Below, one piece after another: positions 8,324 to 29,127 of a stretch of DNA of 64,000 bases. Below the pieces are notes generated by a model. It did no database searches. It saw only the letters and a list, made by a program, of their open reading frames with translations, and was not told where the DNA came from. Within the stretch, counting starts at the first letter, position 1; each line of letters opens with the position of its first letter. The position numbers and the translations under genes were made by a program. The DNA comes from Exiguobacterium antarcticum DSM 14480. GTDB lineage: Bacteria; Bacillota; Bacilli; Exiguobacteriales; Exiguobacteriaceae. Where the stretch lies: contig NZ_JMKS01000003.1 of the NCBI RefSeq assembly GCF_000685865.1, forward strand, positions 682,001 to 746,000, in the 5' to 3' direction.

Positions 8324-8347
8324 TATGGAGACGGCGGGAGTCGAACC
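8324..8347. repeat. att repeat, truncated copy of the tmRNA 3' end (distal to integrase)
   Basis: This 24-bp segment matches 28770-28793, the 3' end of ssrA, with a single mismatch (C at 8335, T at 28781, in the last pair of the T-stem). No other tmRNA sequence is present here. It marks the far junction of the integrative element. Confidence 0.88.
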
Positions 8348-8562: not shown

Positions 8563-9858
8563 TTAATTAGTAATATTGAATAATATCTGTAATAACTCTC
8601 TCTCCGTAGTTTCTCGGTCTACTAACGAGATTGAATATACACGTAAAAGAATGTCTTTATCTTCTAATTTCCAAGATTGTATAAATAAATCCTCACTTTG
8701 AATTAGCCCTGTTTCAGGATATAACAAGATACCTCTACTTGCATTTTTGTACCTAGTTAAATAAGCATACATTTGAAACATGTCTTCTCGTTTGACTCCA
8801 GAACGTCTTACTTCTTCTTTGTCAAAAATTTGCTTCCACTTTGTATCGATAATAATTTGATTGTCATCTCCAATTACTATATCTGGTTTTAGTTGGAATA
8901 TATCACGATTTGTTATTTCATTTTTAAACAAACGATGTCTTTGATCTTGTATATAAACAGGCCGATCTATTATACCTTCTAATAGAATAGCAATATATGC
9001 TTCAAATAAATCGTTCATTTTAAAAATAATGACAAATGTATTTGTGGAACTATGATGTTGCATCGTATTAGTTTCATTTTGTAGAAATTGTTTCGCTAAC
9101 TTAAATGGTTTCTCAAAACGTTTACTTGTTCGATTTAATTTTATTTCGTTCAATTGATGTTTTGTAAATATTTTATTTTCAACTGTATCTAATAAGTAAT
9201 CAATTTGCTGCAATTGCTTTTTAGTTTCAAAGCTTCTAACCGTTTTAGTCAATAAAGATACTGCGCTTTTCAAAACTTGATTTAAAATATTATTGTTTAT
9301 ACGTTCCTCATACCTAACGGCTACTTGATAGGGCTTGTTATTTAATAGATTGTTTCGAATATGTTGTGCAACTAGTAGTTGCCCTTTTAATGAATTTGCA
9401 TTTTCTTCTATTAATAAATACTCTTGCATAATTCCACGATGTAATTCTTTTAATAGAGTATCTGCAAAGTAATTTGCTAATATCTCTTTTAGTTCACCAT
9501 GTTCTAATTCATTGGAAGCATAATCTACTATAATATCAAATTCGTAACATGTATTTATCATTTCAATTAAGGTAACTCTCATTTGCTTGTAATCATTTTG
9601 AGGAGAAATTTTCGGCAAAATTTCGAGTGCTACGTCTTGTACTTGTAAGTAACCAACGTAATTAATGATCTTGAACTTTTTGTCTCCCCATAATATCGCG
9701 TTTTGTTCTAATCCTAACTCGTTCCATTTCTCTTTAATATGCCACAACTGAGTTTCTGTAATCGTGTTATTGTCAAAATAACGTTCGCTGTCGACATCTT
9801 CAATAATTTCAATCCAATCGAAACTCTCCTTTACTCGAACTACTTTTACATTACTCAT
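8563..9858 (-). CDS. mcrC: McrC, nuclease subunit of McrBC restriction system
   Basis: 431 residues, PF10117-type McrC. The N-terminal half links to McrB; the C-terminal PD-(D/E)XK nuclease shows KPDIVIGDDNQIIIDTKWK near residue 330, with the D and D-x-K catalytic set. It cuts modified-cytosine DNA when activated by the McrB GTPase ring. Its ATG overlaps the mcrB stop by 8 nt (ATGAGTAA), so the two are translationally coupled. A complete pair, probably functional. Confidence 0.93.
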   Translation of the reverse strand: MSNVKVVRVKESFDWIEIIEDVDSERYFDNNTITETQLWHIKEKWNELGLEQNAILWGDKKFKIINYVGYLQVQDVALEILPKISPQNDYKQMRVTLIEMINTCYEFDIIVDYASNELEHGELKEILANYFADTLLKELHRGIMQEYLLIEENANSLKGQLLVAQHIRNNLLNNKPYQVAVRYEERINNNILNQVLKSAVSLLTKTVRSFETKKQLQQIDYLLDTVENKIFTKHQLNEIKLNRTSKRFEKPFKLAKQFLQNETNTMQHHSSTNTFVIIFKMNDLFEAYIAILLEGIIDRPVYIQDQRHRLFKNEITNRDIFQLKPDIVIGDDNQIIIDTKWKQIFDKEEVRRSGVKREDMFQMYAYLTRYKNASRGILLYPETGLIQSEDLFIQSWKLEDKDILLRVYSISLVDRETTERELLQILFNITN

Positions 9859-12283
9859 CTATAGCAACACTTTCTTTTATATATATATTTATTAACGCTT
9901 GAGCAGAAGGATCTTTTACGAGAGAATAAACTACTTTTTTTGACTGAATTTTAGCTGTCTTCCCAAATAACTCATTTGCATTTATTGTTTTTTTAGACAA
10001 GAAATAATCATTTTCATTACTATCGGAGTTTATTGCCCCCCCTAGTACTAATTCGATTTTTTCCCAATCATCATAAAAATATTCTTGTAACAATGGAATT
10101 ATTTTACGTTGCATCACTTCAATCAATTCTGAAGAACTTTCTTTTCCAATAAAAAAGGCATGTCCAACTTGATGATCGCGGTCATATAAATACTCAATTC
10201 TTTGATTAATTTTTTTTAATAGACTTTGAACATCAATTCCTTCTACTTCTGTTAACACATCAGGTTCAGGCAGCATTTCTTCAAAATCAAATCTTCTACG
10301 TAGTGCAGTATCCATTAATGAGATTGAACGATCCGCTGTATTCATTGTGCCTAATATGTAAACATTTTTCGGTACAGAGAACTTTTCATTTGAGTATGGT
10401 AACGTAACTTCTAAGCCTTTAATTGTACCGTCATCCTCTACGTTAAATCGTTTGTCTTCTTCAATCAAAGTTATAAGTTCCCCAAAAATTTTAGAAATAT
10501 TACCACGGTTTATCTCATCTATAATTAATACAAAGCGTTCTTCTTCGGCGTTTTTATTTGGTGTTATAAAATTTTTTATAGCTTCTATGTTCAGCTGATC
10601 TTTACCAAACGGATAAATGGACTGTTGTGAAAACCTTCTTGAATCTGTATTTGTCGCATTGAAAATGTGTTCAGCTTCTTCCTCATTACTGCTAATAAAT
10701 AGCCATTCAACTTTTCTAAAATGATTATAAGGTATTTCCGTTTCCTCATCGTAGTAATAGTGACCAGTCACCTTTGCGATTGCTCTAAGCTTTAAATTAC
10801 CTTTTGAAACAATTACAATATCACCGATTTGTAAGATATTTTTAAAGTTATTTACCATCTTGATGACACTATTGCTAGTATCATCCTCATACTCTCCAAA
10901 TTCATTTGAAACATCTGTTAAATTATTTTTATTTGTAAAATCGATTCCACTCCCGTGCCCAAGCGCAATTAATTTATTTTCAATACAATAACGATATATT
11001 TTTTCACCTTCGATACTATTTGCTTTTCCTAAAGAAATTTTATAAATATCACTTTGATCAATATCTGTCGATGAAGAATTCGAAAGTTGATAACGACTCT
11101 TTGCTAATTCACAAATTTCTTTAAATACACCATTTTGAGGTGTAAATGGTGCTCCTTCTTTTTCAATATCACTGCGGAGGCCTTCTACAAAGTCTTCATA
11201 ACTAAACGACTGATGGAACGTGCAAAATTGGATTTGTTTATTTTCGATATACATATGATAAGCTTCTTCATAGTCTTTGCGAGTACGTTCTACATCAGAA
11301 AAATATGGATTTACAATATTTACAGCCTTCTCAATGACTTTGTAAGTTTTTCCGGTGCCTGGCGGGCCATACAAGATTGTATTTTTAGGAAAGCTCATTT
11401 TTTCTACCTCATTCTTAAAATCATTATTGTCATTAAGATACTTTTGGATTTCATTTAATAAAGGATCTGATTCATCGTTTGCAGTTAAAAGTCTCGTTGA
11501 AATACCTTCTTGTAATTTCCCATTTAAACTTTGAAATTTCTCTTCTAAGATCTTCATTTTCATAAATTTACTTCCACGCCACGTTCGAAGTCTCAATATT
11601 AAATTTTCACCATCTAAACCTAAGTCATTACATGTCTGAACAATTTTTTGTAATGAATGTATGTCTGGTAATTCTCGGTATGTTAATGCGCTAGTAATAC
11701 TTTTATCTGCTTTTCTATGTCTTGGAAAACCTAAAGCTAATTCATAAACTTCTTCATCATTTTCTGATTGTATGTAAATTGAATCATCTTTAAAAAAAGC
11801 TCTAGTAAATTTTAATTCATTACTATCCATCAATGTTCGAATGCAATCGCCAAATTCGATTGCTTTATCAATTTCAAGTAAATTATTATCGGTAAATTTT
11901 GTTCCTAAATAGTTCGGTAACTCTTTAAATTGAGGTAAAAATTCAAATGGTAGCATAAAAGAACTACTTGGGTTTTTACCATGTGTGTAACGATATCCTA
12001 GAACAGGTCTTTCATAAACTTCTGATACTTCAGCGATATGTGTCATCATTGGAGAATGAGTAATTTTCTCTCTTAAATAAGAATCTTTAATATTTTTCAT
12101 TTTAGCTCCAACAACAATTGCTATTTTATCTCCAACTTTTTCAGGGAGTTCGAGATTATCTAACTTTCTTTGAGATTGTGTTAATTTAGTTATTTCATTG
12201 GGCCAATAAAAAACTCCCTTATTAATAAATGCTTCATATTCTTCGATCGTATTTGAAAAAAGTACAAAGTTTTGATGTCCCAT
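9851..12283 (-). CDS. mcrB: McrB, AAA+ GTPase subunit with inserted EVE-like domain
   Basis: About 810 residues. I start at the ATG at 12283 (MGHQNF), which follows GAGGTAG. An N-terminal domain of unknown specificity is followed by Walker A LYGPPGTGKT near residue 304, Walker B LIIDEINRGNISKIFGE near 590 and the McrB signature NTADRSI. About 285 residues separate Walker A and B, far more than usual. Within this gap, around 410-500, is a stretch like an EVE/PUA modified-base reader (ALGHGSGIDFT, LQIGDIVIVSKG). McrB forms a GTP-driven ring that translocates DNA to McrC. The N-terminal domain and the insert may both read modified bases. Confidence 0.9.
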   Translation of the reverse strand: MGHQNFVLFSNTIEEYEAFINKGVFYWPNEITKLTQSQRKLDNLELPEKVGDKIAIVVGAKMKNIKDSYLREKITHSPMMTHIAEVSEVYERPVLGYRYTHGKNPSSSFMLPFEFLPQFKELPNYLGTKFTDNNLLEIDKAIEFGDCIRTLMDSNELKFTRAFFKDDSIYIQSENDEEVYELALGFPRHRKADKSITSALTYRELPDIHSLQKIVQTCNDLGLDGENLILRLRTWRGSKFMKMKILEEKFQSLNGKLQEGISTRLLTANDESDPLLNEIQKYLNDNNDFKNEVEKMSFPKNTILYGPPGTGKTYKVIEKAVNIVNPYFSDVERTRKDYEEAYHMYIENKQIQFCTFHQSFSYEDFVEGLRSDIEKEGAPFTPQNGVFKEICELAKSRYQLSNSSSTDIDQSDIYKISLGKANSIEGEKIYRYCIENKLIALGHGSGIDFTNKNNLTDVSNEFGEYEDDTSNSVIKMVNNFKNILQIGDIVIVSKGNLKLRAIAKVTGHYYYDEETEIPYNHFRKVEWLFISSNEEEAEHIFNATNTDSRRFSQQSIYPFGKDQLNIEAIKNFITPNKNAEEERFVLIIDEINRGNISKIFGELITLIEEDKRFNVEDDGTIKGLEVTLPYSNEKFSVPKNVYILGTMNTADRSISLMDTALRRRFDFEEMLPEPDVLTEVEGIDVQSLLKKINQRIEYLYDRDHQVGHAFFIGKESSSELIEVMQRKIIPLLQEYFYDDWEKIELVLGGAINSDSNENDYFLSKKTINANELFGKTAKIQSKKVVYSLVKDPSAQALINIYIKESVAIDE

Positions 12284-12453
12284 AACTACCTCACATAATT
12301 TCATTATTTTTAAATTGACATAATAAACAGTAAATTTATTATAGATCATTTTATAATTTATATTTATTAATCCCTGACTAAGCTTTTGTCTCCATTAAAG
12401 CTGAATTCAGGAGTTGGATATCTTAGAGTGCTGAAAACACCTTTTAAATATAG

Positions 12454-13989
12454 TTACAAATCAATTAACTTAACTACTTTTCTTAATTGATCATCGGATT
12501 GTAATTTTTCGTCATCAACATATTTTATCAAGTGCTTCTTGTATCTATGAGTATTATCGATAATCACCATTTTATTTTTTGCTCTTGTGATAGCTACATA
12601 ATGTTTATTTCTAGATTCTTCATTTAGAAGATCGTAGTCTCCTGCGAAAGCAACTACTTGATCAAATTCTAATCCTTTAGAGCCGAATACAGTCATTACT
12701 TTTAGGTGAGAATTGTTTCTTCTAAAACAAACTTCAAAAGCTGGATCAGAGAGAGTATCATACAAACTTTGCACTTCAGTATTACTTACCACAATATCGA
12801 ATAATTTTTCAAATTCTTTAAATATCACTTGTAGTTCTTCCAATTTTACTTTTTTCTTAGAGTTTAAAGGCGTTAAATTTTTTTCATATTCTTTAATTGC
12901 TTCATAGTCATTATCAATTTTTAATGACTCACAGAAGTCATAAATTGAAAAGAAAGAATCAAAGTAAAACGCAGCAACTTGTTTTAATAAAAATCCATTC
13001 ACCAAACTTTCATCAATTGGAGTCTTAGGTATAAATAAAAAATCGTATCCAATTTCTTTAGCACTCTCACAAAATTTCACAGCACTCGCATTAACATTAA
13101 TTAGAACCGTAGTTTCTTTTTTTATGTCTAACTCCCCTGATAAAAATAGCTTCTTTAAACAATCTGCCCGTGACAATGCAGTTTTGCAAAGTACTATATT
13201 AGTTATTTTTTCTTTCGACTCAATAAAATACTCAGGATGATGTATAAGGTTTGCAAAATTTGTGATTTGTGGATGACATCGGAAATTATGAGTTAATACA
13301 TATTTATCAAAGTCTCTAGATGTTAACTCTTTAAAAATATTCTTCCTAGCTCCTCTCCACATATATATAGCTTGTTTCTCATCGCCAACAATAAAGAGCT
13401 TTACACGCAGTTCTTTCTTTATAAACATAAATAATTCATGCATTTCAGTATCTGAGTCCTGATATTCATCTATAAACATCATAAAATACTTCGACTCAAT
13501 GTACTGTCTAGCTGCTAGTGATTTTTCTAATATTACTTTTGCTAGTTCGAATTTGAAGTTTTTTTTAAGTTCGTACTTGTATGAACTTAATATCCCCTCA
13601 TTCTTTAACCTTGTTATACCTTCGTCAAATGTATTCAAAACGGCATCATAGTGAACAACAAATTCACCATTAAAGTTGTGTATTAAGTCTGTATCTGAAA
13701 TGAAGGGTCTAATAATTTCGAACTCTACGAAATTGTCATTGGTACTAACTACTATTTCTTTAACAGCAATGTTATTTTGTGCACGTTCCTTAATTTCTTT
13801 AGTAGCCTTAATTGTAAAAGTGATTGCCGCTATGGTTCTATGTGTTTTCTCAGCATCTAAAACTGTATTAATTTTCTCAATCATAATAGTAGTTTTTCCA
13901 GCTCCAGCACTTGCAGAAACTATGATGCTTCCTATATCATTTTCTAAAATTTCTTCTCTTATATCGATATCTATTACTGAGTTATTCAT
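12454..13989 (-). CDS. gajB: GajB, UvrD-like helicase of Gabija defence system
   Basis: 511 residues, close to the usual GajB length. SF1 motifs are SASAGAGKT (Walker A, about residue 27), MFIDEYQDSD (motif II, about 175), HNFRCHPQI (motif IV), MTVFGSKGLEF (motif V) and HYVAITRAKNKM (motif VI). GajB forms a complex with GajA and is thought to sense DNA ends or termini during phage infection. The ATG at 13989 overlaps the gajA stop by 8 nt (ATGAATAA). It ends 170 bp before the mcrB start. Confidence 0.9.
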   Translation of the reverse strand: MNNSVIDIDIREEILENDIGSIIVSASAGAGKTTIMIEKINTVLDAEKTHRTIAAITFTIKATKEIKERAQNNIAVKEIVVSTNDNFVEFEIIRPFISDTDLIHNFNGEFVVHYDAVLNTFDEGITRLKNEGILSSYKYELKKNFKFELAKVILEKSLAARQYIESKYFMMFIDEYQDSDTEMHELFMFIKKELRVKLFIVGDEKQAIYMWRGARKNIFKELTSRDFDKYVLTHNFRCHPQITNFANLIHHPEYFIESKEKITNIVLCKTALSRADCLKKLFLSGELDIKKETTVLINVNASAVKFCESAKEIGYDFLFIPKTPIDESLVNGFLLKQVAAFYFDSFFSIYDFCESLKIDNDYEAIKEYEKNLTPLNSKKKVKLEELQVIFKEFEKLFDIVVSNTEVQSLYDTLSDPAFEVCFRRNNSHLKVMTVFGSKGLEFDQVVAFAGDYDLLNEESRNKHYVAITRAKNKMVIIDNTHRYKKHLIKYVDDEKLQSDDQLRKVVKLIDL

Positions 13990-15727
13990 CACTTGAAAAC
14001 TCCTTCAATACTTTAAACAGTGGATGACTATAAATCTTTAGGCAATCCTCATCTTCTAGTTGCTCAGCTAGATTTATCATATTTAGTAATTTTGCATTTT
14101 GCAGCCTTCTAATAGGATAGTCACCAAAAACATCTTCCATCTGCTTAGGTATAACATCATATAAATCGTTTTCTAAATCAATTTTAGAGAGATAAATGTT
14201 ATTTTCATTGAATTTTTTAATTAGTGTTTTATTTCGTTTATAAAGACTTTTTTTCTCTTCTTTTATAATCTCTTCTTTTTTAGAAGTGATAAAATTACCA
14301 TTAGTCGACCTGGCCGAACTAAAATCGATTTGAATTGCTTCTTTCTTTGTTTCATTTAATATATCAAGACATCTATTAAATCCTATAAGATCAAAAGTCG
14401 TATTCTGGTTTCGTTTAGATTTTAAATCATTGTCAGTTTTTACGAAACATTTTATATTTAATGCAGTTAAAATTTTAACATAAGGTCTAAATTTTATACC
14501 ATCTACTTCTAATATGTATCCACCCTCTAATTCATATATAGGATTAGACACATTGAGAATTCTTTCGAATAGCACTCTTTCAGATGGCCCTTCAATTAAA
14601 AGTACTCTATCTGCAAACAAAGACTTGGCTAAAGCTTTGTTTAATTCTTTCTTTAAATTTCTATACTCTGCATCAACTTTATAAACAACAGAAGTACAAT
14701 TTGTTTTATTTTTTGAATAGACTCTTATTAATGCTGCCTCGTCCATTTCATATAATAACTCTGAAGAATGGGTCGATAAAAAGAAATACTTATATACGTC
14801 TAAGTTAAATAATTGATGTGATAAGGCTATTTGCATAGATCTATGTAAGCTATTCTCCGGTTCTTCAATTAAATAAACGGTTATTTTATTCGATTTTAAA
14901 CTTTTTGTAATATGATTCATCATAGAATATGCAATTATTTTCTTCCTTCCATCTCCGGAAGTAGGGTATAAGTTATCATCGTTATTTTTTTTTATATATG
15001 GAGTTAAATCATTGAAGTAACCTTTAATGGCCATTTCTGATTTTAATTCTATTTTTATCTCTTCCTTTTTTAATTCTTGGTACTCCTTGGTTAACATTAG
15101 TTGAAAGTTTTTAATAATATTCATTTCACCAATTTTATCGTTTAAATCACTTGATAAACTTTTAATTTCCTTAGAGATTTTAATGTCTTCTTCGTTCAAT
15201 TTTGATTCGTTAAATATACTCCGTCTGTTCTTTTTAAATATCTGCTCAAGATTAATAGCAGGATCAAGATATACTACTTTAAAAATTTTATCTAACTCCG
15301 AAAAAACTCCATTAGAAGGAATAGGAGATAGATCTGTCGGGTTGTTCCCCCAGAATAAAAATGGTTCACCAATATCTTCATTTAAGTTAAACTTACTTTT
15401 TACCAAAAAATAGAATGAATCTAGATTATCATTGCTTCTCTCTTTCCCTACTTTTGATACCAAGAATTGGGTGTCTTCAGATTGTTTATAGTCTTTTAGA
15501 CTAACTTCCAATTGTAGTGTTATTTCATTATCTATATTGCGTTGGAAAAAATCAGATTCTTTAAATCCATCTTTCCGAATGTCCTTATCTAACAAAAAAC
15601 GTATAGCAAAAAGAAAATTAGTTTTACCTACATCATTCATTCCAAACAAGACATTTTGATTAGTCAAATCAACTTTAACTTCTTCAAAGTTTCTAAAGTT
15701 CTTTATAACTAAACTTTTAAACTCCAC
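13982..15727 (-). CDS. gajA: GajA, OLD-family ATPase/TOPRIM nuclease of Gabija
   Basis: About 580 residues. The N-terminal ABC-type ATPase has NVLFGMNDVGKT (Walker A, about 30) and VYLIEEPENSLH (Walker B, about 290), then the H-loop FLSTHSSELL. The C-terminal TOPRIM domain shows LIEGPSERVLFE (about 380) and CFVKTDND (about 430), the acidic metal-binding set of OLD nucleases. GajA is a site-specific DNA nuclease held inactive by nucleotide. I take GTG at 15727, with GGAG 9 nt upstream; the ATG at 15736 abuts the GGAG and would be poorly placed. Both genes are intact, and length, order and coupling match Gabija. Confidence 0.9.
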   Translation of the reverse strand: MEFKSLVIKNFRNFEEVKVDLTNQNVLFGMNDVGKTNFLFAIRFLLDKDIRKDGFKESDFFQRNIDNEITLQLEVSLKDYKQSEDTQFLVSKVGKERSNDNLDSFYFLVKSKFNLNEDIGEPFLFWGNNPTDLSPIPSNGVFSELDKIFKVVYLDPAINLEQIFKKNRRSIFNESKLNEEDIKISKEIKSLSSDLNDKIGEMNIIKNFQLMLTKEYQELKKEEIKIELKSEMAIKGYFNDLTPYIKKNNDDNLYPTSGDGRKKIIAYSMMNHITKSLKSNKITVYLIEEPENSLHRSMQIALSHQLFNLDVYKYFFLSTHSSELLYEMDEAALIRVYSKNKTNCTSVVYKVDAEYRNLKKELNKALAKSLFADRVLLIEGPSERVLFERILNVSNPIYELEGGYILEVDGIKFRPYVKILTALNIKCFVKTDNDLKSKRNQNTTFDLIGFNRCLDILNETKKEAIQIDFSSARSTNGNFITSKKEEIIKEEKKSLYKRNKTLIKKFNENNIYLSKIDLENDLYDVIPKQMEDVFGDYPIRRLQNAKLLNMINLAEQLEDEDCLKIYSHPLFKVLKEFSSDE

Positions 15728-15745
15728 ATTTTTCATCTCCTATAA

Positions 15746-15808: not shown

Positions 15809-16069
15809 TTATTTGCAGTAAATGTTTGTAACTTCTCTAAATTCTGATTTAAAACGTTCTCTTTTAGTTGGTTTCTGAGATAAAAACTTAAACCTGCATA
15901 GATTAACTTCTTTACCTTCAGCCAGATTTATTAAAGGTTTAACATTTTTTAGCTTCAGAAGCATATCTTCCTTCCACTGATCACTATAAAATAAAAATTC
16001 ACCCTTTGTTTCAATTATTAACTCGAATAACTGATCGTATTCTTCTAAGTAAAGGACGAAATCAAGCAT
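15809..16069 (-). CDS. Small unrecognised protein upstream of Gabija
   Basis: About 86 residues from the ATG at 16069 (GGTGGAG 11 nt upstream); a GTG at 16081 is an alternative. It is hydrophobic and aromatic at the N-terminus (LDFVLYLEEYDQLFELIIE) and basic at the C-terminus (SQKPTKRERFKSEF). I recognise no domain. It has its own terminator and lies between two defence loci, so it may be a regulator, an immunity factor or a remnant. Bases 16082-16279 hold no further gene, only short ATTTGAACCA-like repeats near 16200. Confidence 0.5.
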   Translation of the reverse strand: MLDFVLYLEEYDQLFELIIETKGEFLFYSDQWKEDMLLKLKNVKPLINLAEGKEVNLCRFKFLSQKPTKRERFKSEFREVTNIYCK

Positions 16070-16279
16070 AAAACTTCTCACTCCACCAAACTCTACAAAT
16101 CTTAACTTTTGTTCATTTCTTATTAAACAAACGTTTGTGTTTTGAGATCAATTAAATAGAAGAAACTCTGAATGCCAATCCATTTAAATACTTTCACTTC
16201 AATTGAACCAATTTGAACCAACATGATAAATATAAGATGTTAGTTGAATACAACAACAATAATCGATGTCTTGCCTAAC

Positions 16280-19200
16280 TTATTCCATTCGTCTTACATT
16301 ATCTTCAATGAACTGAATTTCATTCTGGCTCAAACTATATTTTTTATATAGCTGATTATCAATTTCAGATATTGATTTTGACCAATTGATATCCGATTTG
16401 TCGGTAAAATTTTGAACAGGAACTTTTGACCACTTATCTCGAGTATTCTCTTGGGTTATTTTTAACACGCCTAACATTGCTCTTGCGAATTTGCTCTTAA
16501 TGTATTTCAAAACTGACTCTGCTTCATATTGTGTTGAAAATCCACCAATTGAAAGAAAAGTTTCTGTAGCCCCAACATTGGGTTCTAGAATTAATGGCGA
16601 ACTTATCACTTCGCCGAATGTCCCACTTCCACTAGCTTTGGGTATAATCACTTTATACTCCTCGAAACTACTTGGAGCGTCCAGATATCTTTTATCCATC
16701 CAATAATACACACGCCGGCTATTTTCAAGTCCTAAAATGCGTACAAACTCCCCTTCATGCTGAGGCATATCTTTGAAAAAAATCACGTCTTTCAGCAGCT
16801 TGAATACGCCTGTACCAATGTCATTCTTATGACCCTTAGACTGAATACCCTCAATTTCAGGATAATCTTCGTGTGCAGTTTTCGTTAATTTATATACGCC
16901 TCGACCTGAAATTAAAAGATCCAATGTTTTTAAAGTAGCGGGAGTTACTTTATTCAAAATTGAATTTAATTCATCATAAACTGTAAAAATCCCAATTTCT
17001 TTAAAGGTTTTTCCCTTGTCTCTATACGTTATAGCAATTCCGCCTTTAATATCAGTATTAGGAAATACCTTTGAGCTATCCTCGAAATAATTAACAACTT
17101 TTAGATGTTTATCAGATAACATTTTCATATTCCATGATCTTGGAGTACTTCCGGCATTATATAAAAAGCGCCCTGGATGAATCATTTCTACTTTATCAGC
17201 TAGTTTATAAGACTCCTCCAAAAACTTGTGGTAAATTGGTGGCGCATAAGTTTTATTATCACCTATTGTTTCATCTTGATATGGTGGATTTCCTATTATT
17301 ACATCAAATTTCAAATTATCATCTCCAAACGCTTTGTAAATATCTGTTTTTAATTTTTCTCCACTAGCTAAAATCATTGTATCGACTTCTATTAGGTTTT
17401 TTGTGGAAACATCTATTACATCATTATAGATGAAATTTTTAACAATATTATATATGATTTTACTTGGCGCACATGCGTATACTTGATTTTCTAATATCCA
17501 CTTGATACGTTCTTGTTGATCCGGGATTTGTTCTTGCAATCCATCGTTTAATTTCTTGACTATCTCTGTAATAAACAAACCGCTCTTTACATATAAGTCA
17601 GCAAATTTTATTGTTTTGTTAGAAAATATATCTGGGTTTTCTTCTTCTAATATATTAACCATTTTTTTAACTACTCTTTTTGGTGTAAAAATTTGATTTG
17701 TTTTTTGTGGAGGAATGTAATCGAAAATATCCTCTTGCAAACTATCATCAAAATAATTGGCTAAACGCTTTTTAGTATCTAAAAACTCACGAATACTTGC
17801 ATTAAAAACTATTTCATTGAATAAACCATGAACGACTACCGTATTACCTTTATCATTCTCATATGCAAAACCATCTCGAAGCTTTTTGAACTCTTCTTTT
17901 GTGATACTTGTAAGATTTTCAAAGGTAGCGTCATCAATATTCTTTTCAAAGTTTTGTAATCTTGTCTGATCATCCCCGTAAGCCATTAAAAATGCAGGAA
18001 TTGTACGTGCAAATCCTCGTAAATGATCCCGAACATCATCTTCTGTTGTTTTCTTTTTCTTTTCTTCTACTTTTTCTATTTGTTCTTCTACAATTGTATG
18101 AATCGTCTCTTCTACTTCTTTATTTATTTCTTCAGTAAAAGTCTTTTTTATTTCTTTCCTTTTCTCTTCATATTGTTGAGTTACAACCTGCAACGTTTCT
18201 TCATTATTTCCTTGTAAAGCGTCTACTTTTTTCTGTTCATACTCTCTCTCTAAATCTTTTACTTGATTTGTCAGTGCTAAATGTTTATCAGTAATCATAT
18301 CTTCTAATGTTACATGAACCGTTTTCTTTATATCCTCTGTTTGTCCTTGATTTAATTTGAAGTTATCTTTCAACTTATCAAAACCATTCGCAAATGATTT
18401 CGTTATATCGCCGGCTAAAGCTATGATCGATTCCCTTTGTTTTTCTTCAGCTTCGTCAATTGACTTAGCTACCTCTTCTATAACTTCAATCGGTGCATAT
18501 ATTTTTTCGCCAAATATATCTTTTGATTTACCAACTACAACCTCTTTCGGTATTCTAACTTCTCCTTCTTCGTCTAAATATGGATCTGTCACTTCCAGTT
18601 CACGCGGCTTCTCTAATCTTTTATTTTTTTCTGGTGGTATTTTATCCAATATTTCTTTAAATGGTGAATCACCCGAGAAAATACCCGCTATGTTAGCGAA
18701 AAGTAGGTTGCTCATAAAGCCTCTCTTCACTACTTCTCTTGACGTAATACGTGTTGGAATTGCAAGGACTTCAGAAGCATTAATTTCATGCATCGATCCG
18801 TCTTCATCTTCTGCAATAACAGGGAAAAAATTTAATAGCTTTTTAATCTTACTTTTTCTTTCGCCGCTTGTTTTTGAAGTATCACTAGTCAAATTATTCG
18901 CTAAATCGTCATATAAGCGTAATGTTCTGTCTGGGGAAAAATCAAATATATACGCATTTTCTTTACGATATAACCTTCCATCCTGTTCAAATTCATATGG
19001 ATTTTGTGATCTAAATGCTGCCTGAAAGTATAAACTAGGCGATTCAATATTATTTAACATAAATACTGCCGTCCACTCAGGTATAGTCACACCTGTCGTC
19101 AATTGGCCTACAGAAAGCGTAATTGTTTTATCATGTTTTTGTATTGCTTCACGCACTTTATCAAAACTTTTTGTATTCCCTTTCACATCCAGCGCTTCTG

Positions 19201-20623
19201 CTTCTAAGTCCTCACTTATACTTACTCCATCTCCTGCTGCAAGTATCACAGTGTAATCTTTAAATGTCGAATGCTGTTTTAATAGTTTCTCCAAAGCTTT
19301 CGCCGCTTTTACACGTGGAAGTAACCAAAATGTATGGTTTAATTCACTTCGATATTGACTCTCTGAAAAAGGGAATTTCCCTGAGGACAAATTATCCAAG
19401 AACCTTATAACACTGTTTTCATATTCAAATTGTCCATTTTCTTTCACACGGAAAAATTCATTTAAATCAAATGCATAATCTACATTTGTTTCGTTTTCAA
19501 TTTGCAAACCCGCTGTTACTTCATCTTCTATCATTTTACTCATTTGATATGTAAATAAATTTAATGTTGGCAAATTTTCATATGGGTTACTTCCGATAGC
19601 CGGATCCCAGTTTTCTTTAGCTTCCTGTTCATCTACGTATGACCAATTAAAAATTTGCTCTTCATTAAATTTATTATTTGCTATTGCCTTAAATGGGGTT
19701 CCAGATAAATGTAATGTGAACTTTCTTTTGATTTGATTGAATGCCCTATCCGTCTTTTTAGTATCAATTCCCTCATGTGCTTCGTCGACAACCAATACAT
19801 CCCAGTCTAAACCAGCAACCCATTCTAATTTATTGTAAGGACCTCCAGCAAATTTCGCTCCTTTTAAATCCTGTAGAGATATAAATGCAATTTGTGATGG
19901 ATTTGAATAATTTGTTGTATCAAGATGGTCTATGTACTGTTGTCTCGACATTGCTTTACCGCTTAATGCATCCGTTTCAGAAACGAATTTCATATGCGGT
20001 TCTTGCCATGCAATATACTTCTGAAAATCATCGAACCAAGAGTTGGCAATCGCTGGTCTATTCGTTACGATTAATACATTTGTTGTCTTTAAATTACGGA
20101 TAAAATCGTACGTAGTTAATGTTTTTCCAAAACGTGGCTTTGCATTCCATAAAAACTCTATTTCTTCGCGATTACTATGATAATACTCGACTGTTTTTTC
20201 AACAGCTTGTTGTTGTTCATTCCGTAATACATAATCAAATTTATCATCGGTAATTTGTATTTCTTCATAGTCACGATTAATAAATTTATCTGTTAATTCT
20301 TCAGCTTTTTCAAGTGTTTCATTAAAATAAAACCATTCATCAGCTCGGCTGTTGAAATCCTTTCTTTCAATCCCATTCAATAGTAAAAAGCGATGAAGCT
20401 CTTTATCACGAAACCATTTACCATTTGATTTCCTAGCTAGTTTTTCAAACAATATATCCGGATTTAATCCCGCTGTACCAACTTGTTCAAAAACTCTTGT
20501 AGCGGCATCTCGTGTTGTATCTCCTATTTTCACGTAGCCGTCATGAGTAGGAACTTCAGGTAGAGTGTAACCGTAGACTTTATATTCGATTTCTTTAAAA
20601 GGCTTAATTATAGTTTTATCCAT
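16280..20623 (-). CDS. GIY-YIG / SF2 helicase / N6-adenine methyltransferase fusion (restriction-like)
   Basis: About 1447 residues. An N-terminal GIY-YIG/T5orf172-like nuclease has VYGYTLPE, then YVKIGDTTR with the trailing arginine (residues ~15-45). An SF2 helicase follows: RFGKT (~162), VVDEAHEG (~281), LSGTPFK (~308), TTGVTIPEW. A charged coiled coil runs about 790-865 (YEEKRKEIKKTF, EEQIEKVEEKKKK). The Eco57I-like methyltransferase has IFTPKRVVKKM, a degenerate motif I (LYVKSGLF) and catalytic NPPY near 1111; the tail is probably a target-recognition domain. This single chain could read, methylate, translocate and cut. I start at ATG 20623, overlapping the methyltransferase-like gene by 8 nt (ATGGATAA). 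Nearest known analogues by layout are type IIG and type ISP enzymes, but those I know of use other nucleases. Confidence 0.85.
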   Translation of the reverse strand: MDKTIIKPFKEIEYKVYGYTLPEVPTHDGYVKIGDTTRDAATRVFEQVGTAGLNPDILFEKLARKSNGKWFRDKELHRFLLLNGIERKDFNSRADEWFYFNETLEKAEELTDKFINRDYEEIQITDDKFDYVLRNEQQQAVEKTVEYYHSNREEIEFLWNAKPRFGKTLTTYDFIRNLKTTNVLIVTNRPAIANSWFDDFQKYIAWQEPHMKFVSETDALSGKAMSRQQYIDHLDTTNYSNPSQIAFISLQDLKGAKFAGGPYNKLEWVAGLDWDVLVVDEAHEGIDTKKTDRAFNQIKRKFTLHLSGTPFKAIANNKFNEEQIFNWSYVDEQEAKENWDPAIGSNPYENLPTLNLFTYQMSKMIEDEVTAGLQIENETNVDYAFDLNEFFRVKENGQFEYENSVIRFLDNLSSGKFPFSESQYRSELNHTFWLLPRVKAAKALEKLLKQHSTFKDYTVILAAGDGVSISEDLEAEALDVKGNTKSFDKVREAIQKHDKTITLSVGQLTTGVTIPEWTAVFMLNNIESPSLYFQAAFRSQNPYEFEQDGRLYRKENAYIFDFSPDRTLRLYDDLANNLTSDTSKTSGERKSKIKKLLNFFPVIAEDEDGSMHEINASEVLAIPTRITSREVVKRGFMSNLLFANIAGIFSGDSPFKEILDKIPPEKNKRLEKPRELEVTDPYLDEEGEVRIPKEVVVGKSKDIFGEKIYAPIEVIEEVAKSIDEAEEKQRESIIALAGDITKSFANGFDKLKDNFKLNQGQTEDIKKTVHVTLEDMITDKHLALTNQVKDLEREYEQKKVDALQGNNEETLQVVTQQYEEKRKEIKKTFTEEINKEVEETIHTIVEEQIEKVEEKKKKTTEDDVRDHLRGFARTIPAFLMAYGDDQTRLQNFEKNIDDATFENLTSITKEEFKKLRDGFAYENDKGNTVVVHGLFNEIVFNASIREFLDTKKRLANYFDDSLQEDIFDYIPPQKTNQIFTPKRVVKKMVNILEEENPDIFSNKTIKFADLYVKSGLFITEIVKKLNDGLQEQIPDQQERIKWILENQVYACAPSKIIYNIVKNFIYNDVIDVSTKNLIEVDTMILASGEKLKTDIYKAFGDDNLKFDVIIGNPPYQDETIGDNKTYAPPIYHKFLEESYKLADKVEMIHPGRFLYNAGSTPRSWNMKMLSDKHLKVVNYFEDSSKVFPNTDIKGGIAITYRDKGKTFKEIGIFTVYDELNSILNKVTPATLKTLDLLISGRGVYKLTKTAHEDYPEIEGIQSKGHKNDIGTGVFKLLKDVIFFKDMPQHEGEFVRILGLENSRRVYYWMDKRYLDAPSSFEEYKVIIPKASGSGTFGEVISSPLILEPNVGATETFLSIGGFSTQYEAESVLKYIKSKFARAMLGVLKITQENTRDKWSKVPVQNFTDKSDINWSKSISEIDNQLYKKYSLSQNEIQFIEDNVRRME

Positions 20624-21362
20624 CAATTTCTGCCATCTCCTCTTTAAATACATCGATTATTTTAACGGGTAAATATTGCATTTCTGTTCGCTTCTCTTCC
20701 GGTAACTCTATATTTTCATCCAGAAAATCAAAAATATCTATTTGCTCTGGTTCATTTTTGGGCTGTCGTAAAGCTTTACCACTTTCTTTTTGTGTCTTTT
20801 CAAATATCTCATTAAGTGTATATTCTGTTCTTTGAACCTTTATATTTTTAGTCGTTTTTCTTAAATTAAGAGGCATCCATTCACTAAATACTAATGGAGT
20901 ACCATCTACTGCCTCATGCGTTAGAAAGTTACCATTTCCAATATTTAATGAAATAATTTTTTTAGCGCTATCTAATACTTTACGATTCATATTTCCATTA
21001 TGTTTTTTAATTTGTTCTTTATAATAGTCATAGTATTTTTGAAACATATTCATTACACATATTTGCGCATTATCCTCTAATAATTCAATCCCATAAAGCG
21101 TTGACAGAGAGAGTAATGAATAATTTTCATACTGAATTAAATCATTATTATACTCATTTGATACCATATTTAATTTTCTATCGAGTATCTCTATTAAAAA
21201 GGCTCCTTCTCCAGCGGCTGGCTCTAAAAACGTTGTAGTAAGATTTTCACAAGCCTCTTTAATTTCAGGTATATTTAGCATCTGATTTACAATTCTTTTT
21301 GGCGTAAATACCTCACCGTGTTTTTGAACACGTGCTTTACTTTTTATTATTAGTTCTGTCAA
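20616..21362 (-). CDS. Small N6-DNA methyltransferase-like protein lacking NPPY
   Basis: 248 residues from TTG at 21362 (GGGGA 8 nt upstream). It begins KHGEVFTPKRIVNQML and has a good SAM-binding motif I, FLEPAAGEGAFLIEIL, followed by the ELLEDNAQICVMNM region of N6-adenine methyltransferases. The position where NPPY is expected instead reads LVFSEWMPLNL, so it should not methylate alone. The neighbouring giant protein has the reverse defect: NPPY present, motif I degenerate. The two may form one composite active site or a regulator-enzyme pair. They overlap by 8 nt and are surely co-expressed. Confidence 0.82.
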   Translation of the reverse strand: MTELIIKSKARVQKHGEVFTPKRIVNQMLNIPEIKEACENLTTTFLEPAAGEGAFLIEILDRKLNMVSNEYNNDLIQYENYSLLSLSTLYGIELLEDNAQICVMNMFQKYYDYYKEQIKKHNGNMNRKVLDSAKKIISLNIGNGNFLTHEAVDGTPLVFSEWMPLNLRKTTKNIKVQRTEYTLNEIFEKTQKESGKALRQPKNEPEQIDIFDFLDENIELPEEKRTEMQYLPVKIIDVFKEEMAEIDG

Positions 21363-22663: not shown

Positions 22664-23119
22664 ATGGAAGGTAATATTGCTGCAAAACGAGTAAATATCG
22701 TACAGGTTAAACTGGTTCGAGAAAAAACTATTTTATATAAAGATCGCCGAATTAGCTCACCTCAAACTGCTTACAATCTTTTTACAGAAATCTTAGGAGA
22801 TGTTGATCGGGAACACTTCATAGTAATGTGTCTTGATATTAAAAATCAGCCAACTTGTATTCAAACTGTTCATATCGGGAGTTTAAACGCCAGCATTGTG
22901 CATCCCAGAGAAGTTCTAAAGTCAGCTCTACTTAGTAATTCTGCCTCTATAATTGTGGCTCACAATCATCCTAGCGATGATTGCACTCCAAGCCCTGAAG
23001 ATATATCAGTTACTAAACGGTTAAAAGAGGCTGGTGAAATTATTGGTATAGAATTAATGGATCATTTAATTCTTGGCACTGATTCATTTATTTCCTTAAA
23101 AGAAAAAGGCTATATCTAA
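22664..23119 (+). CDS. radC: RadC-like JAB/MPN-domain protein
   Basis: 151 residues. The JAB zinc-metalloprotease-like core is intact, with HNHPSDDCTPSPEDISVTKRL and the upstream VHIGSLNASIVHPREV. It lacks the N-terminal helix-hairpin-helix part of chromosomal RadC, as is common for copies on mobile elements. The role is unclear; JAB proteins on islands are often next to restriction or anti-restriction genes. AAGGAG sits 8 nt before the ATG. Confidence 0.85.
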   Translation: MEGNIAAKRVNIVQVKLVREKTILYKDRRISSPQTAYNLFTEILGDVDREHFIVMCLDIKNQPTCIQTVHIGSLNASIVHPREVLKSALLSNSASIIVAHNHPSDDCTPSPEDISVTKRLKEAGEIIGIELMDHLILGTDSFISLKEKGYI

Positions 23120-27478: not shown

Positions 27479-28648
27479 TTGAAAAAGAATAGAGTCACAA
27501 CTGTTAAAAAATATAATTTAAAATCTGGGGAAATACGATATGAGTTCTCTGTTTATTTAGGGGTAGATCCACTGACCGGAAAGCAAAAACGAACCACTAA
27601 GAGAGGTTTTAAAAATCGGAAAGAAGCTGAGTTAGCATTAGCACGTATAAAATTTGAGGTAGCAAACGGTACTTACCGTCAAGTATCAGTAGAAACATAT
27701 TTAGATATATACAATTTATGGATTACCAATTATGAAAAGACAGTGGAAGAAAGCACATTCATTAAAACAATAGGAATTTTTAAGAATCATATAAACCCTG
27801 CTTTAGGTAGCTACAAAATCGAAAAGATAACAATAGATATTTGTCAAAGCAACCTCAACTTGTGGGCAGAAAAACTAAAGAATTTTCGAATGGTAAAATC
27901 TTACGCTTCAAAAGTTTTTAGTTTTGCAGTAAAGAGAGGCTATTTACAATCCAATCCCTTCACATATGTAGATGCTCCAATGATTTTATCAAAAAAAAGA
28001 GGCATAATAAATGATGATGAAAAAGAAAACTTTTATACCAAAGAACAGCTTCTAAACTTTCTTGAAGCACTTGAGCATGAAAAAAACGTAAAAGCTTTTA
28101 CGCTTTTTCGCTTACTCGCTTTCAGTGGTATGCGCAAAGGAGAAGCATTAGCATTAACTTGGAACGATTTAAACTTTAGTACCCAAGAACTTCGTATTAA
28201 TAAAGCTTTATCTAGAGGAAAAGACAATAAATTATATGTAAAAACTACGAAAACCGGAATCGCCAGATCAATAAAGTTGGATGAGAAGACTATTCTAATT
28301 TTAAAAAGATGGGAAGAAGAGCAAAAAAATTCTACTTCCTTTTTTACAACTGACCGACAAACTAGTGCACTCATATTTAGTAATGAAAACGGAGAATATT
28401 TACAACCTACAAAAACTAGAAAGTGGATGCTTCACATTCAAGAGAAGTACAACTTCGAAAAAATCACTACTCATGGCTTGCGCCACACACATTGTTCTCT
28501 TTTATTTGAAGCTGGTGCTAGTTTAAAGGAGGTACAAGATAGATTAGGTCATAGTGATATACAAACAACTATGAACATCTATGCTCATGTTTCAAAACAA
28601 GCACGAGATGAAGCAATTAAGAAATTCTCAAACTATGTTGAACTTTAA
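27479..28648 (+). CDS. int: Tyrosine site-specific integrase of the ssrA element
   Basis: 389 residues. It starts at TTG 27479 after a strong TAGGAGGAG. The N-terminal arm-binding domain begins KYNLKSGEIRYEFSVYLG; the core SAM-like domain follows; the catalytic domain shows MRKGEALALTW (Arg), HGLRHTHCSLL (His-x-x-Arg) and GHSDIQTTMNIYAHV (His and nucleophile Tyr). It cuts and rejoins the tmRNA 3' end; its position about 120 bp from the intact att copy is typical. Confidence 0.96.
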   Translation: MKKNRVTTVKKYNLKSGEIRYEFSVYLGVDPLTGKQKRTTKRGFKNRKEAELALARIKFEVANGTYRQVSVETYLDIYNLWITNYEKTVEESTFIKTIGIFKNHINPALGSYKIEKITIDICQSNLNLWAEKLKNFRMVKSYASKVFSFAVKRGYLQSNPFTYVDAPMILSKKRGIINDDEKENFYTKEQLLNFLEALEHEKNVKAFTLFRLLAFSGMRKGEALALTWNDLNFSTQELRINKALSRGKDNKLYVKTTKTGIARSIKLDEKTILILKRWEEEQKNSTSFFTTDRQTSALIFSNENGEYLQPTKTRKWMLHIQEKYNFEKITTHGLRHTHCSLLFEAGASLKEVQDRLGHSDIQTTMNIYAHVSKQARDEAIKKFSNYVEL

Positions 28649-28769: not shown

Positions 28770-28793
28770 TATGGAGACGGTGGGAGTCGAACC
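28770..28793. repeat. att repeat within intact ssrA (proximal to integrase)
   Basis: 24 bp at the tmRNA 3' end, covering the acceptor-stem strand, part of the T-arm and two bases beyond. The partner is 8324-8347, with one mismatch. Confidence 0.88.
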
Positions 28794-29127
28794 CACGTCC
28801 GAAGGCATCGTATACTTAAGCTTCTACGTGTGTAGTCAATTTATTGGGATCTCGTCGTCAGGCTGCCAATTGACAGGCGTCCGTCCGACCAGTCTGATTC
28901 CATCTCTTCTCTTTCCCACCAGACGGAAGGGTCCAAGCGTAGCCTGTTTAAAGTGAGACCCTAGAAATCAGCCGACCAGGCGACGGCTGCTAGGATCCGT
29001 AGTAGCTATTAAGCTGCTGCGAGTTGTGTGTTAGTTTTGCCAGTTATGGCTGATGCGTTTTAACGAGGCCGACCCCTCGACACGCCACAGAAGACCGAAC
29101 TACCCCCGTCGAATCCGTAACGTCCCC
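28772..29127 (-). ncRNA. ssrA: tmRNA
   Basis: About 356 nt, excluding the added CCA. The 5' end GGGGACG pairs with 3' CGTCTCC to form the acceptor stem; discriminator A follows, and CCA is not encoded. The T-arm reads GTGGGTTCGACTCCCAC. The tag frame lies at 29009-29041 and reads GKTNTQLAAA with tandem stops TAA TAG. tmRNA with SmpB frees stalled ribosomes and tags the products for ClpXP-type proteolysis. It remains complete because the integrated element restores the 3' end. Confidence 0.96.

What the first reader, a model, noticed from the sequence alone, without database searches (positions are those of the whole stretch)
16280..21362. GIY-YIG + helicase + methyltransferase giant with a complementary half-methyltransferase: candidate undescribed restriction system
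A 1447-residue protein joins a GIY-YIG-like nuclease, an SF2 helicase, a coiled coil and an NPPY methyltransferase whose motif I is degenerate (LYVKSGLF). Its coupled partner has a good motif I (EPAAGEGAFL) but no NPPY. I know of type IIG and type ISP enzymes with similar domain logic but other nuclease types; I know of no characterised member with this layout.
Basis: partly seen in the sequence, partly recalled or inferred. Interest (0 to 1): 0.85.

Follow-up and report, generated by a model that had tools for sequence, protein, structure and literature searches.

The report
Restriction system with a two-part methyltransferase
Two overlapping genes appear to encode a phage-defence machine whose DNA-marking enzyme is built from two separate proteins, one of which, in many relatives, also carries a short tag resembling the one that proteins use to ride on the DNA-replication clamp.

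Summary
Gene B (1447 aa from ATG 20623) reads GIY-YIG/T5orf172-like nuclease, SF2 helicase, coiled coil, a methyltransferase N-half with a K-[ST]-G motif I, and a catalytic C-half (NPPY plus target-recognition-like region). Gene A (248 aa) overlaps it by 8 nt: an N-half with a good motif I and no NPPY. The "degenerate" motif I is conserved, not decayed.

New here: (1) in 31 of 154 loci A is fused to the NPPY half. The predicted fold of one fusion aligns along its length with complete adenine methyltransferases (CamA Z 20.1, M.TaqI Z 16.0), and a Fusobacterium phage carries such a fusion with no helicase match. A plus the C-half is probably the working methyltransferase. (2) A's tail holds a peptide matching the beta-clamp consensus QL[SD]LF: 18 of 65 non-redundant As against 0.03 expected. 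The window's copy is an imperfect QIDIF.

Best reading: an ATP-dependent, Type ISP-like restriction system with a methyltransferase assembled in trans. Docking on the replication clamp is the boldest reading not excluded. Six library searches found no experiment on a member.

The parts
20616..21362 (-). gene A, 248 aa: methyltransferase N-half (Pfam N6_Mtase 9-125) with motif I and no NPPY
21198..21224 (-). motif I of A, EPAAGEGAF (residues 47-55)
20730..20744 (-). clamp-motif-like peptide QIDIF in A's tail (residues 207-211); QLDLF in near relatives L004, L011, L017; QIDIF also in L003
20616..20623 (-). 8-nt stop/start overlap ATGGATAA between A and B
16280..20623 (-). gene B, 1447 aa from ATG 20623 (ORF open to ATG 20653, 1457 aa; residue numbers in this report use the 1457 frame)
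20279..20608 (-). GIY-YIG / T5orf172-like domain, residues 16-125
18674..20233 (-). SF2 helicase (ResIII at 141-321), residues 141-660; FGKT, DEAH, SGTPF, QAAFRSQ
18044..18436 (-). charged, coiled-coil-like segment, residues 740-870 (31% E+K over 746-865; judged by composition only)
17345..17698 (-). second methyltransferase N-half with K-S-G motif I, residues 986-1103 (FADLYVKSGLF at 17573-17605)
16283..17326 (-). catalytic C-half, residues 1110-1457, with GNPPYQ at 17276-17293
   Evidence: fold of the homologous part of L031
16454..16978 (-). target-recognition-like region, residues 1226-1400: 41-42% identity to L003, L004 and L017, whose helicases are 84% identical to the window's (82% identity to L011)

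Best explanation
A and B form one ATP-dependent restriction-modification machine with the logic of Type ISP enzymes but another nuclease and a methyltransferase assembled in trans. A supplies the cofactor-binding N-half (motifs X and I). B's C-terminus supplies the catalytic half (NPPY) and the target recognition region. Together they make a gamma-class adenine-N6 methyltransferase (supported by natural fusions and fold prediction; activity inferred). The K-[ST]-G N-half in B is a conserved second N-half that joins this unit to the helicase; what it binds is unknown. On an unmethylated site the helicase probably translocates and the GIY-YIG domain cuts (inferred). A's flexible tail may dock the complex on the replication clamp, so that new DNA is methylated just behind the fork (inferred, separate and less certain; see the novel case).
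For: Layouts among 154 B-containing loci: A with giant B (30, the window's type), A with helicase protein H and a separate NPPY protein (33), A-NPPY fusion with H (31), A with a longer MTase ORF and H (37); the other 23 were incomplete or had no detected A. In the 31 fusions A is N-terminal; in 30 of them the C-half match starts 0-72 residues after A's, in L053 only the end of the C-half was matched but NPPY is present. On a FastTree helicase tree of 129 loci the fusion label needs at least 13 changes, 6 forced by starred branches, so the C-half has moved more than once. AlphaFold2 of the L031 fusion: pLDDT 82.2, pTM 0.79; VIA-align: CamA Z 20.1 with 410 residues aligned, rmsd 5.6, model 6-569; LlaGI Z 18.9; M.TaqI up to Z 16.0, model 20-547. 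None of 102 unfused As has NPP[YFW]; 125 of 133 As matched a motif-I pattern; 137 of 139 MT ORFs of 300 aa or more have NPP[YFW]. Fusobacterium phage FNU4 carries a 546-aa A-NPPY fusion, and B matches that record only at residues 1114-1454. In four near relatives the C-half is only 37-40% identical (NPPY core) although K-S-G half and helicase stay at 69-74%: the C-half behaves as an exchangeable cassette. Mycoplasma amphoriforme L052: one A precedes two B-type units. Helicase motifs among 145 H proteins of 800 aa or more: Walker A 142, SGTPF 136, DE[AS]H 102, motif VI pattern 96.
Against: No activity has been shown. AlphaFold2 knows complete methyltransferases and may complete any half it is given; the unfused window pair was not modelled. 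Foldseek's TM-scores for the same matches are moderate (about 0.45-0.5 for CamA). In the fourth layout (37 loci by a length rule) the MTase has its own N-half in canonical order (DPACKSG...NPPY), so A could be an accessory. Locus L147 has no separate A despite 6.4 kb of upstream DNA, L088 none in 1.4 kb. The GIY-YIG fold match is weak (Z 5.4; Foldseek gave nothing at E <= 0.001). The DEAH box was not found in 43 of 145 H proteins by the pattern used.
Confidence: 0.7

Rival explanations
1. B is a self-sufficient methyltransferase whose K-S-G N-half still binds SAM; A is a regulator or extra subunit, as in a Type IIG enzyme with an accessory protein.
For: In the giant-B and long-MTase layouts the K-[ST]-G half and NPPY half are contiguous in canonical order. 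K-[ST]-G is strongly conserved (131 of 134), which argues that this half still does something. PADLOC calls B Type IIG (158 bits).
Against: In 64 loci (33 and 31) the NPPY half is not joined to the K-[ST]-G half, and in 31 of these it is joined to A (a few of the 33 are misfiled, see full report). A phage carries A-NPPY with no match to the rest of B. The first glycine of motif I is replaced.
Confidence: 0.17
2. The QL[SD]LF-like peptide in A's tail docks A on B or another partner, and has nothing to do with the replication clamp.
For: The window's own copy is QIDIF, and the long-MTase layout lacks strict matches (0 of 17). Short hydrophobic peptides in disordered tails often bind partner proteins (general knowledge).
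Against: Preferences at all five positions agree with the clamp consensus (Q 25 of 32, L or M 22 of 29, S or D 25 of 35, L 20 of 25, F 25 of 28). The peptide is kept in A-NPPY fusions, where A needs no docking to the C-half (7 of 16 strict), and a phage fusion with no helicase match carries QLNLF.
Confidence: 0.4
3. The complex does not cut DNA but, like BREX, stops phage replication after site recognition; the GIY-YIG domain is inactive or does another job.
For: The YIG tyrosine is a lysine (K42 invariant), the fold match is weak, and BrxX is among the fold matches of the methyltransferase (Z 17.7).
Against: The presumed active-site residues (Y27, R53, D83, E106; assigned by position, not tested) are 99-100% conserved, hard to explain in a dead nuclease. 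No BREX family was hit by the 16 neighbouring proteins scanned.
Confidence: 0.12

Closest known systems
Type ISP restriction enzymes (LlaGI, LlaBIII)
   Same: Order nuclease, SF2 helicase, helical coupler, gamma-class N6A methyltransferase, recognition domain (LlaGI layout read in passages of PMC4872093); the L031 fusion model matches LlaGI with model range 1-568, Z 18.9.
   Different: GIY-YIG-like instead of Mrr nuclease; the N-half with a usual motif I lies in a second protein; no phmmer match to B in the PDB better than E 0.64.
Type IIG enzymes (PADLOC PDLC03626)
   Same: Nuclease-like and methyltransferase domains in one chain; B scores 158 bits.
   Different: B has an SF2 helicase and a modified motif I, and comes with partner A.
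CamA and M.TaqI, adenine methyltransferases
   Same: Fold of A plus C-half: Z 20.1 (CamA) and up to 16.0 (M.TaqI).
   Different: Those are single chains without a motor; here the halves are on two chains or in a fusion with a disordered linker.
GIY-YIG domains near methyltransferases or in HsdR, predicted in 2006
   Same: A GIY-YIG nuclease joined to an NPPY methyltransferase, or inserted in a Type I R subunit (passages in PMC1564403).
   Different: Slx1-like GIY-YIG and other architectures; no half-methyltransferase partner is described in those passages.
DNMT1 with PCNA (function only)
   Same: A methyltransferase thought to work on new DNA through a clamp-binding motif (passage in PMC9690074).
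   Different: Eukaryotic cytosine-5 enzyme, unrelated; clamp binding here is untested.

Membership tests
Type ISP restriction enzyme | Nuclease, SF2 helicase, coupler, gamma-class MTase and TRD in that order in one chain | tested here: inconclusive
   Order present in B by sequence; a working N-half appears to lie in A instead.
Type ISP restriction enzyme | Mrr-family nuclease domain | tested here: not met
   N-terminal domain is T5orf172/MUG113-like in family members (34 and 25 of 38); no Mrr family among B's Pfam hits.
Type ISP restriction enzyme | ATP-driven translocation and cleavage by converging enzymes | not testable with these tools
   needs protein
Type IIG restriction enzyme | Endonuclease and methyltransferase centres in a single self-sufficient polypeptide | tested here: inconclusive
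   Both domain types in B, but A was found in 133 of 154 loci; of the 21 others 15 have under 500 bases before the first gene.
GIY-YIG nuclease superfamily | GIY-YIG sequence motifs with conserved Arg and Glu | tested here: met
   Pfam family hits in 34 of 38 members, window itself only E 0.042; Y27, K42, G44, R53, E106 at 99-100%, I43 75%. That E106 is the catalytic Glu is my assignment.
GIY-YIG nuclease superfamily | GIY-YIG fold | tested here: inconclusive
   Model pLDDT 81. At-HIGLE ranks first at Z 5.4 over 87 residues, next row 3.9; Foldseek had no match at E <= 0.001.
Gamma-class adenine-N6 DNA methyltransferase | Motif order X-I-IV-TRD and the fold | tested here: met
   Met by A plus C-half in natural fusions and by the fold of L031; the window pair itself was not modelled.
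Beta-clamp-binding proteins | QL[SD]LF or QxxLF peptide in an accessible segment | tested here: inconclusive
   Family: 18 of 65 strict, 34 of 65 QxxLF, expected 0.03 and 2.6; in L031 it lies in the pLDDT < 50 stretch 168-235. Window: QIDIF, imperfect.
Beta-clamp-binding proteins | Binding to DnaN | not testable with these tools
   needs peptide and clamp
Type I restriction system (HsdR, M, S) | Separate specificity subunit | tested here: inconclusive
   No specificity-subunit family was hit by the 16 neighbouring proteins scanned; the rest of the genome was not scanned. The variable region is at B's C-terminus.

The most novel reading that the evidence does not exclude
A restriction system tied to the replication fork. 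A's tail carries the sliding-clamp motif, so the modification unit (A plus the NPPY half) rides on DnaN and methylates new DNA before the helicase-nuclease can cut it, a bacterial counterpart of DNMT1 on PCNA. The C-half may also switch between two N-halves: A (SAM-loaded, methylating) and the K-[ST]-G half on the motor (non-methylating, restricting). From the known order of strands in this fold (recalled), only one N-half should be able to pair with the C-half at a time. The first part rests on a motif count; the switch is a guess from architecture.
Probability: 0.4. Interest if true: 0.86.

Novelty: new variant of a known kind. Interest (0 to 1): 0.64.

Why it matters
The family is common in places (54 of 395 genomes in the order of genome G201; 8 of 398 across the phylum, the window's own included) and sits on enterococcal and lactococcal plasmids, yet the searches made here showed no experimental study of it. 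If the methyltransferase is assembled in trans, annotation of motif I in single proteins misjudges such systems, and the C-half is a natural cassette for changing specificity. If A binds the clamp, it would suggest how a restriction system protects the host's new strand in time, and a mutation of the few motif residues would test it.

Tried and rejected
Decayed motif I: rejected, the K-[ST]-G variant is conserved (131 of 134 by pattern, the other 3 TAG; of the 20 loci that the pattern missed I looked at 12, and 11 show K-[ST]-G). A as a complete small methyltransferase: rejected, no NPP[YFW] in 102 of 102 unfused As. A known PDB relative by sequence: for B only one chance hit at E 0.64, none up to E 1 for the L031 fusion; the profile of the N-domain gave only chance hits, best E 0.14. 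Recombinase-driven switching of halves: ORFs in the gaps between A, NPPY and H in ten loci were read by eye and no recombinase was recognised. A background for the clamp motif in the window's own whole genome could not be made. An independent replication of the motif was small: of 51 new loci with short flanks, A was found in 39 and was at least 200 aa in 24 (17 strict, 20 QxxLF, null 0.02 and 0.86), but only 3 of the 24 were under 60% identical to the first set and to each other (2 strict, 3 QxxLF). The motif was noticed in the alignment and first tested on the same sequences. Foldseek on the GIY-YIG model gave no match at E <= 0.001. BrxX, MmeI and DrdV are also fold matches of the MTase, so the fold alone does not say which system it belongs to.

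Rows dropped: one search aligned 150 of 154 N-terminal segments. One search used 131 of 133 As (2 under 200 aa) and then 65 representatives. One search used 129 of 154 loci. One search used 38 of the 141 N-domains found, one search used 45. Alignment A6 (49 rows) used 30 of 31 fusions (L068 left out for its divergent C-half), ten A-only rows cut to their first 150-182 residues, and nine C-half rows.
Full report
THE OBSERVATION. Two minus-strand genes lie at 16280-21362. The upstream one, A, has 248 aa and starts at TTG 21362. The downstream one, B, has 1447 aa from ATG 20623; its start overlaps A's stop by 8 nt. Residue numbers below count from the longest frame (ATG 20653, 1457 aa). Pfam sees ResIII and Eco57I in B and N6_Mtase in A. 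PADLOC scores B as Type IIG restriction enzyme-methyltransferase PDLC03626 (158 bits) and A, weakly, as assorted Type II and Type I methyltransferases (best 40 bits). The PDB holds no sequence relative of B (one chance hit at E 0.64).

THE NUCLEASE. B as a whole gave no GIY-YIG-type Pfam hit; its N-terminal domain alone is a sub-threshold T5orf172 hit (E 0.042), but 34 of 38 relatives scanned match T5orf172 and 25 of 38 match MUG113; both belong to the GIY-YIG clan (recalled). In 149-150 aligned sequences Y27, K42, G44, R53, D83 and E106 are 99-100% conserved. The domain model (pLDDT 81) gives one structure at Z 5 or more: At-HIGLE, Z 5.4 over 87 residues, next row 3.9. Passages of PMC9071465 describe At-HIGLE as a GIY-YIG endonuclease and give PDB 7WME. 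Foldseek alone found nothing at E <= 0.001. I take GIY-YIG as likely, with the structural test supportive but weak.

THE FAMILY. tblastn finds B in 90 plasmid records, chiefly Enterococcus (39), with 41 covering at least 80%. By their titles the fetched genome loci include Bacillota, Bacteroidota, Pseudomonadota and Actinomycetota (phyla assigned by me). It is patchy: 1 of 61 close genomes, the window's own (E <= 1e-10); 7 of 398 in the class (E <= 1e-20); 8 of 398 in the phylum (E <= 1e-50), own included in both; 54 of 395 in the order of genome G201 (E <= 1e-50).

FOUR LAYOUTS. Of 154 loci, 30 have A plus a giant B; 33 have A, a helicase protein and a separate NPPY protein, often about 345 aa; 31 have A fused to NPPY plus a helicase protein; 37 have A, a longer MTase ORF (about 520 aa in many) and a helicase protein; 23 are incomplete or show no A. 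The split between the second and fourth groups is a length cut at 470 aa, and a few loci are misfiled by it or by broken frames (L018, L114, L126, L149 are examples). In the 31 fusions A comes first; in 30 the C-half match starts 0-72 residues after A's match ends, and in L053 only the end of the C-half was matched, with NPPY present. On a FastTree helicase tree of 129 loci the fusion label needs at least 13 changes, 6 of them forced by starred branches (FastTree, so indicative). A was found in 133 of 154 loci. Of the 21 without it, 15 have under 500 bases before the first gene; L052 has A when read with code 4; L147 has no separate A with 6.4 kb upstream, L088 none in 1.4 kb, and L074, L091 and L100 show none in the DNA held, B or H being broken or incomplete in the last two.

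THE METHYLTRANSFERASE. The K-[ST]-G form of motif I in B's own N-half was found in 131 of 134 loci where the pattern matched (KSG 120, KTG 11; the other 3 TAG); 20 loci did not match, and of 12 of these examined 11 show K-[ST]-G. So it is a conserved variant. A, in contrast, keeps a usual motif I (125 of 133 by pattern) and never has NPP[YFW] when unfused (0 of 102). The AlphaFold2 model of the L031 fusion (pLDDT 82.2, pTM 0.79, residues 168-235 disordered) aligns along its length with CamA (Z 20.1, 410 of 585 residues, rmsd 5.6), LlaGI (18.9), MmeI (18.1), BrxX (17.7) and M.TaqI (up to 16.0); Foldseek TM-scores for CamA are moderate, 0.43-0.51. A and the NPPY half thus can make one complete gamma-class fold. 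Fusobacterium phage FNU4 encodes such a fusion (546 aa); B matches nothing else in that record. Tenacibaculum phage PTm1 carries an NPPY half of 344 aa; no A-like ORF was seen in the 1.6 kb before it and the search with A lists no Tenacibaculum record. Within near relatives, the C-half is exchanged as a block: L005, L013, L014 and L027 keep 69-73% identity in the K-S-G half but only 37-40% in the NPPY core and 17-22% in the recognition-like region; L003, L004 and L017 keep 84% in the helicase and 41-42% in the recognition-like region. M. amphoriforme L052 has one A ahead of two B-type units.

THE TAIL OF A. Between A's last conserved block and NPPY lies a variable linker with a recurring peptide. 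In 65 As under 60% identical to one another, 18 hold Q[LM][SD]LF (0.03 expected from 200 shuffles) and 34 hold QxxLF (2.6 expected); by layout the strict count is 7 of 17, 4 of 14, 7 of 16 and 0 of 17, and 0 of 1 incomplete. The 38 matches to a slightly wider pattern all fall at 0.8-0.9 (rounded) of A's length. The H and MT proteins of the same loci have 1 strict match in 87,768 residues, the As 19 in 19,222. In the last 40% of A, with one position left free at a time: Q 25 of 32, L or M 22 of 29, S or D 25 of 35, L 20 of 25, F 25 of 28. This is the bacterial clamp-binding consensus QL[S/D]LF or QxxLF (passages in PMC12309361, and PMC9690074). Against it: the long-MTase layout has no strict match and 5 of 17 QxxLF; the window's own copy is QIDIF, with isoleucine at two positions; the motif was seen before it was tested, and the fresh set was small in independent members. 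Three library searches on clamp binding with methyltransferases or restriction (listed 7 of 7, 20 of 30 and 15 of 36 papers) showed none that describes this, judged by titles and abstract openings and by passages of three papers.

HOW IT MOST LIKELY WORKS. Shown: domain content, gene overlap, natural fusions, conserved motifs. Predicted: fold of one fusion. Inferred: A and B associate; A's SAM is used at B's NPPY; B's C-terminal region reads the target; the helicase moves on DNA when the site is unmethylated; the GIY-YIG domain cuts. Unknown: what the K-[ST]-G half binds. Guess: it competes with A for the C-half, which would make a switch between marking and cutting.

COMPARISON. Type ISP enzymes have the same order of parts with an Mrr nuclease and a one-chain methyltransferase (LlaGI passages in PMC4872093). 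Type IIG is the database label. T5orf172 is listed with the 'Type III restriction enzyme, res subunit' in a table compiled from earlier defence surveys (passage in PMC7251935), and GIY-YIG domains fused to an NPPY methyltransferase or set in an HsdR were predicted in 2006 (passages in PMC1564403). A lactococcal plasmid pair with a PLD-SNF2 helicase protein and a separate Type IIG-like methyltransferase is also described from sequence (passages in PMC6098607); it has another nuclease. I found no paper that studies a member: searches (25 of 56 listed; 1 of 1; 8 of 8; 15 of 24; 7 of 7; 15 of 780), read as listings and abstract openings, with passages of some papers. Subscription papers and REBASE were not searched.

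SURROUNDINGS. The pair lies in an island with McrBC-type genes (8563-12349; PF10117 and an AAA_5 protein), Gabija GajAB (12454-15736), a RadC-like gene, a D5/DUF5906 primase-like gene and a tyrosine integrase (27479-28648) beside tmRNA (28772-29127). A 24-bp near-repeat of the tmRNA end (23 of 24 identical) lies at 8324-8347 and 28770-28793, so the element is probably about 20.5 kb, carrying three defence systems.

Noticed in passing
window 8324-28793: Probable integrative element of about 20.5 kb at the 3' end of tmRNA: tyrosine integrase, D5-type primase-like gene, McrBC-type genes, Gabija and this system between 24-bp near-repeats (23 of 24 identical).
   Followed up: partly
L052, L074 (Mycoplasma amphoriforme A39): Tandem units of the helicase protein plus NPPY half, read with genetic code 4; in L052 one A gene precedes two units, as if one N-half served several specificities.
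   Followed up: partly
L174:2413-4053 (Fusobacterium phage vB_FnuS_FNU4): Phage-borne A-NPPY fusion of 546 aa with a QLNLF peptide and no helicase match in the record: possibly a phage self-protection methyltransferase.
   Followed up: partly
L173:3010-4044 (Tenacibaculum phage PTm1): NPPY half of 344 aa with no A-like ORF recognised before it; Aeromonas and Synechococcus phages conversely have hits to A but not to B.
   Followed up: no
window 22664-23119; L003:4720-5163; L004:3760-4068: A RadC-like or JAB-domain gene lies directly before A in two enterococcal plasmids, and about 1.3 kb from A on the other strand in the window.
   Followed up: no
window 15809-16081: 90-aa ORF between GajA and B with a hit to the end of a PADLOC Type III restriction enzyme model (35.9 bits, residues 780-851 of 873).
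   Followed up: no
L035:8155-9111, L042:8136-9092: A 319-aa ORF resembling abortive-infection Abi_2 proteins (by eye, from memory) lies between the A-NPPY fusion and the helicase gene in Streptococcus.
   Followed up: no
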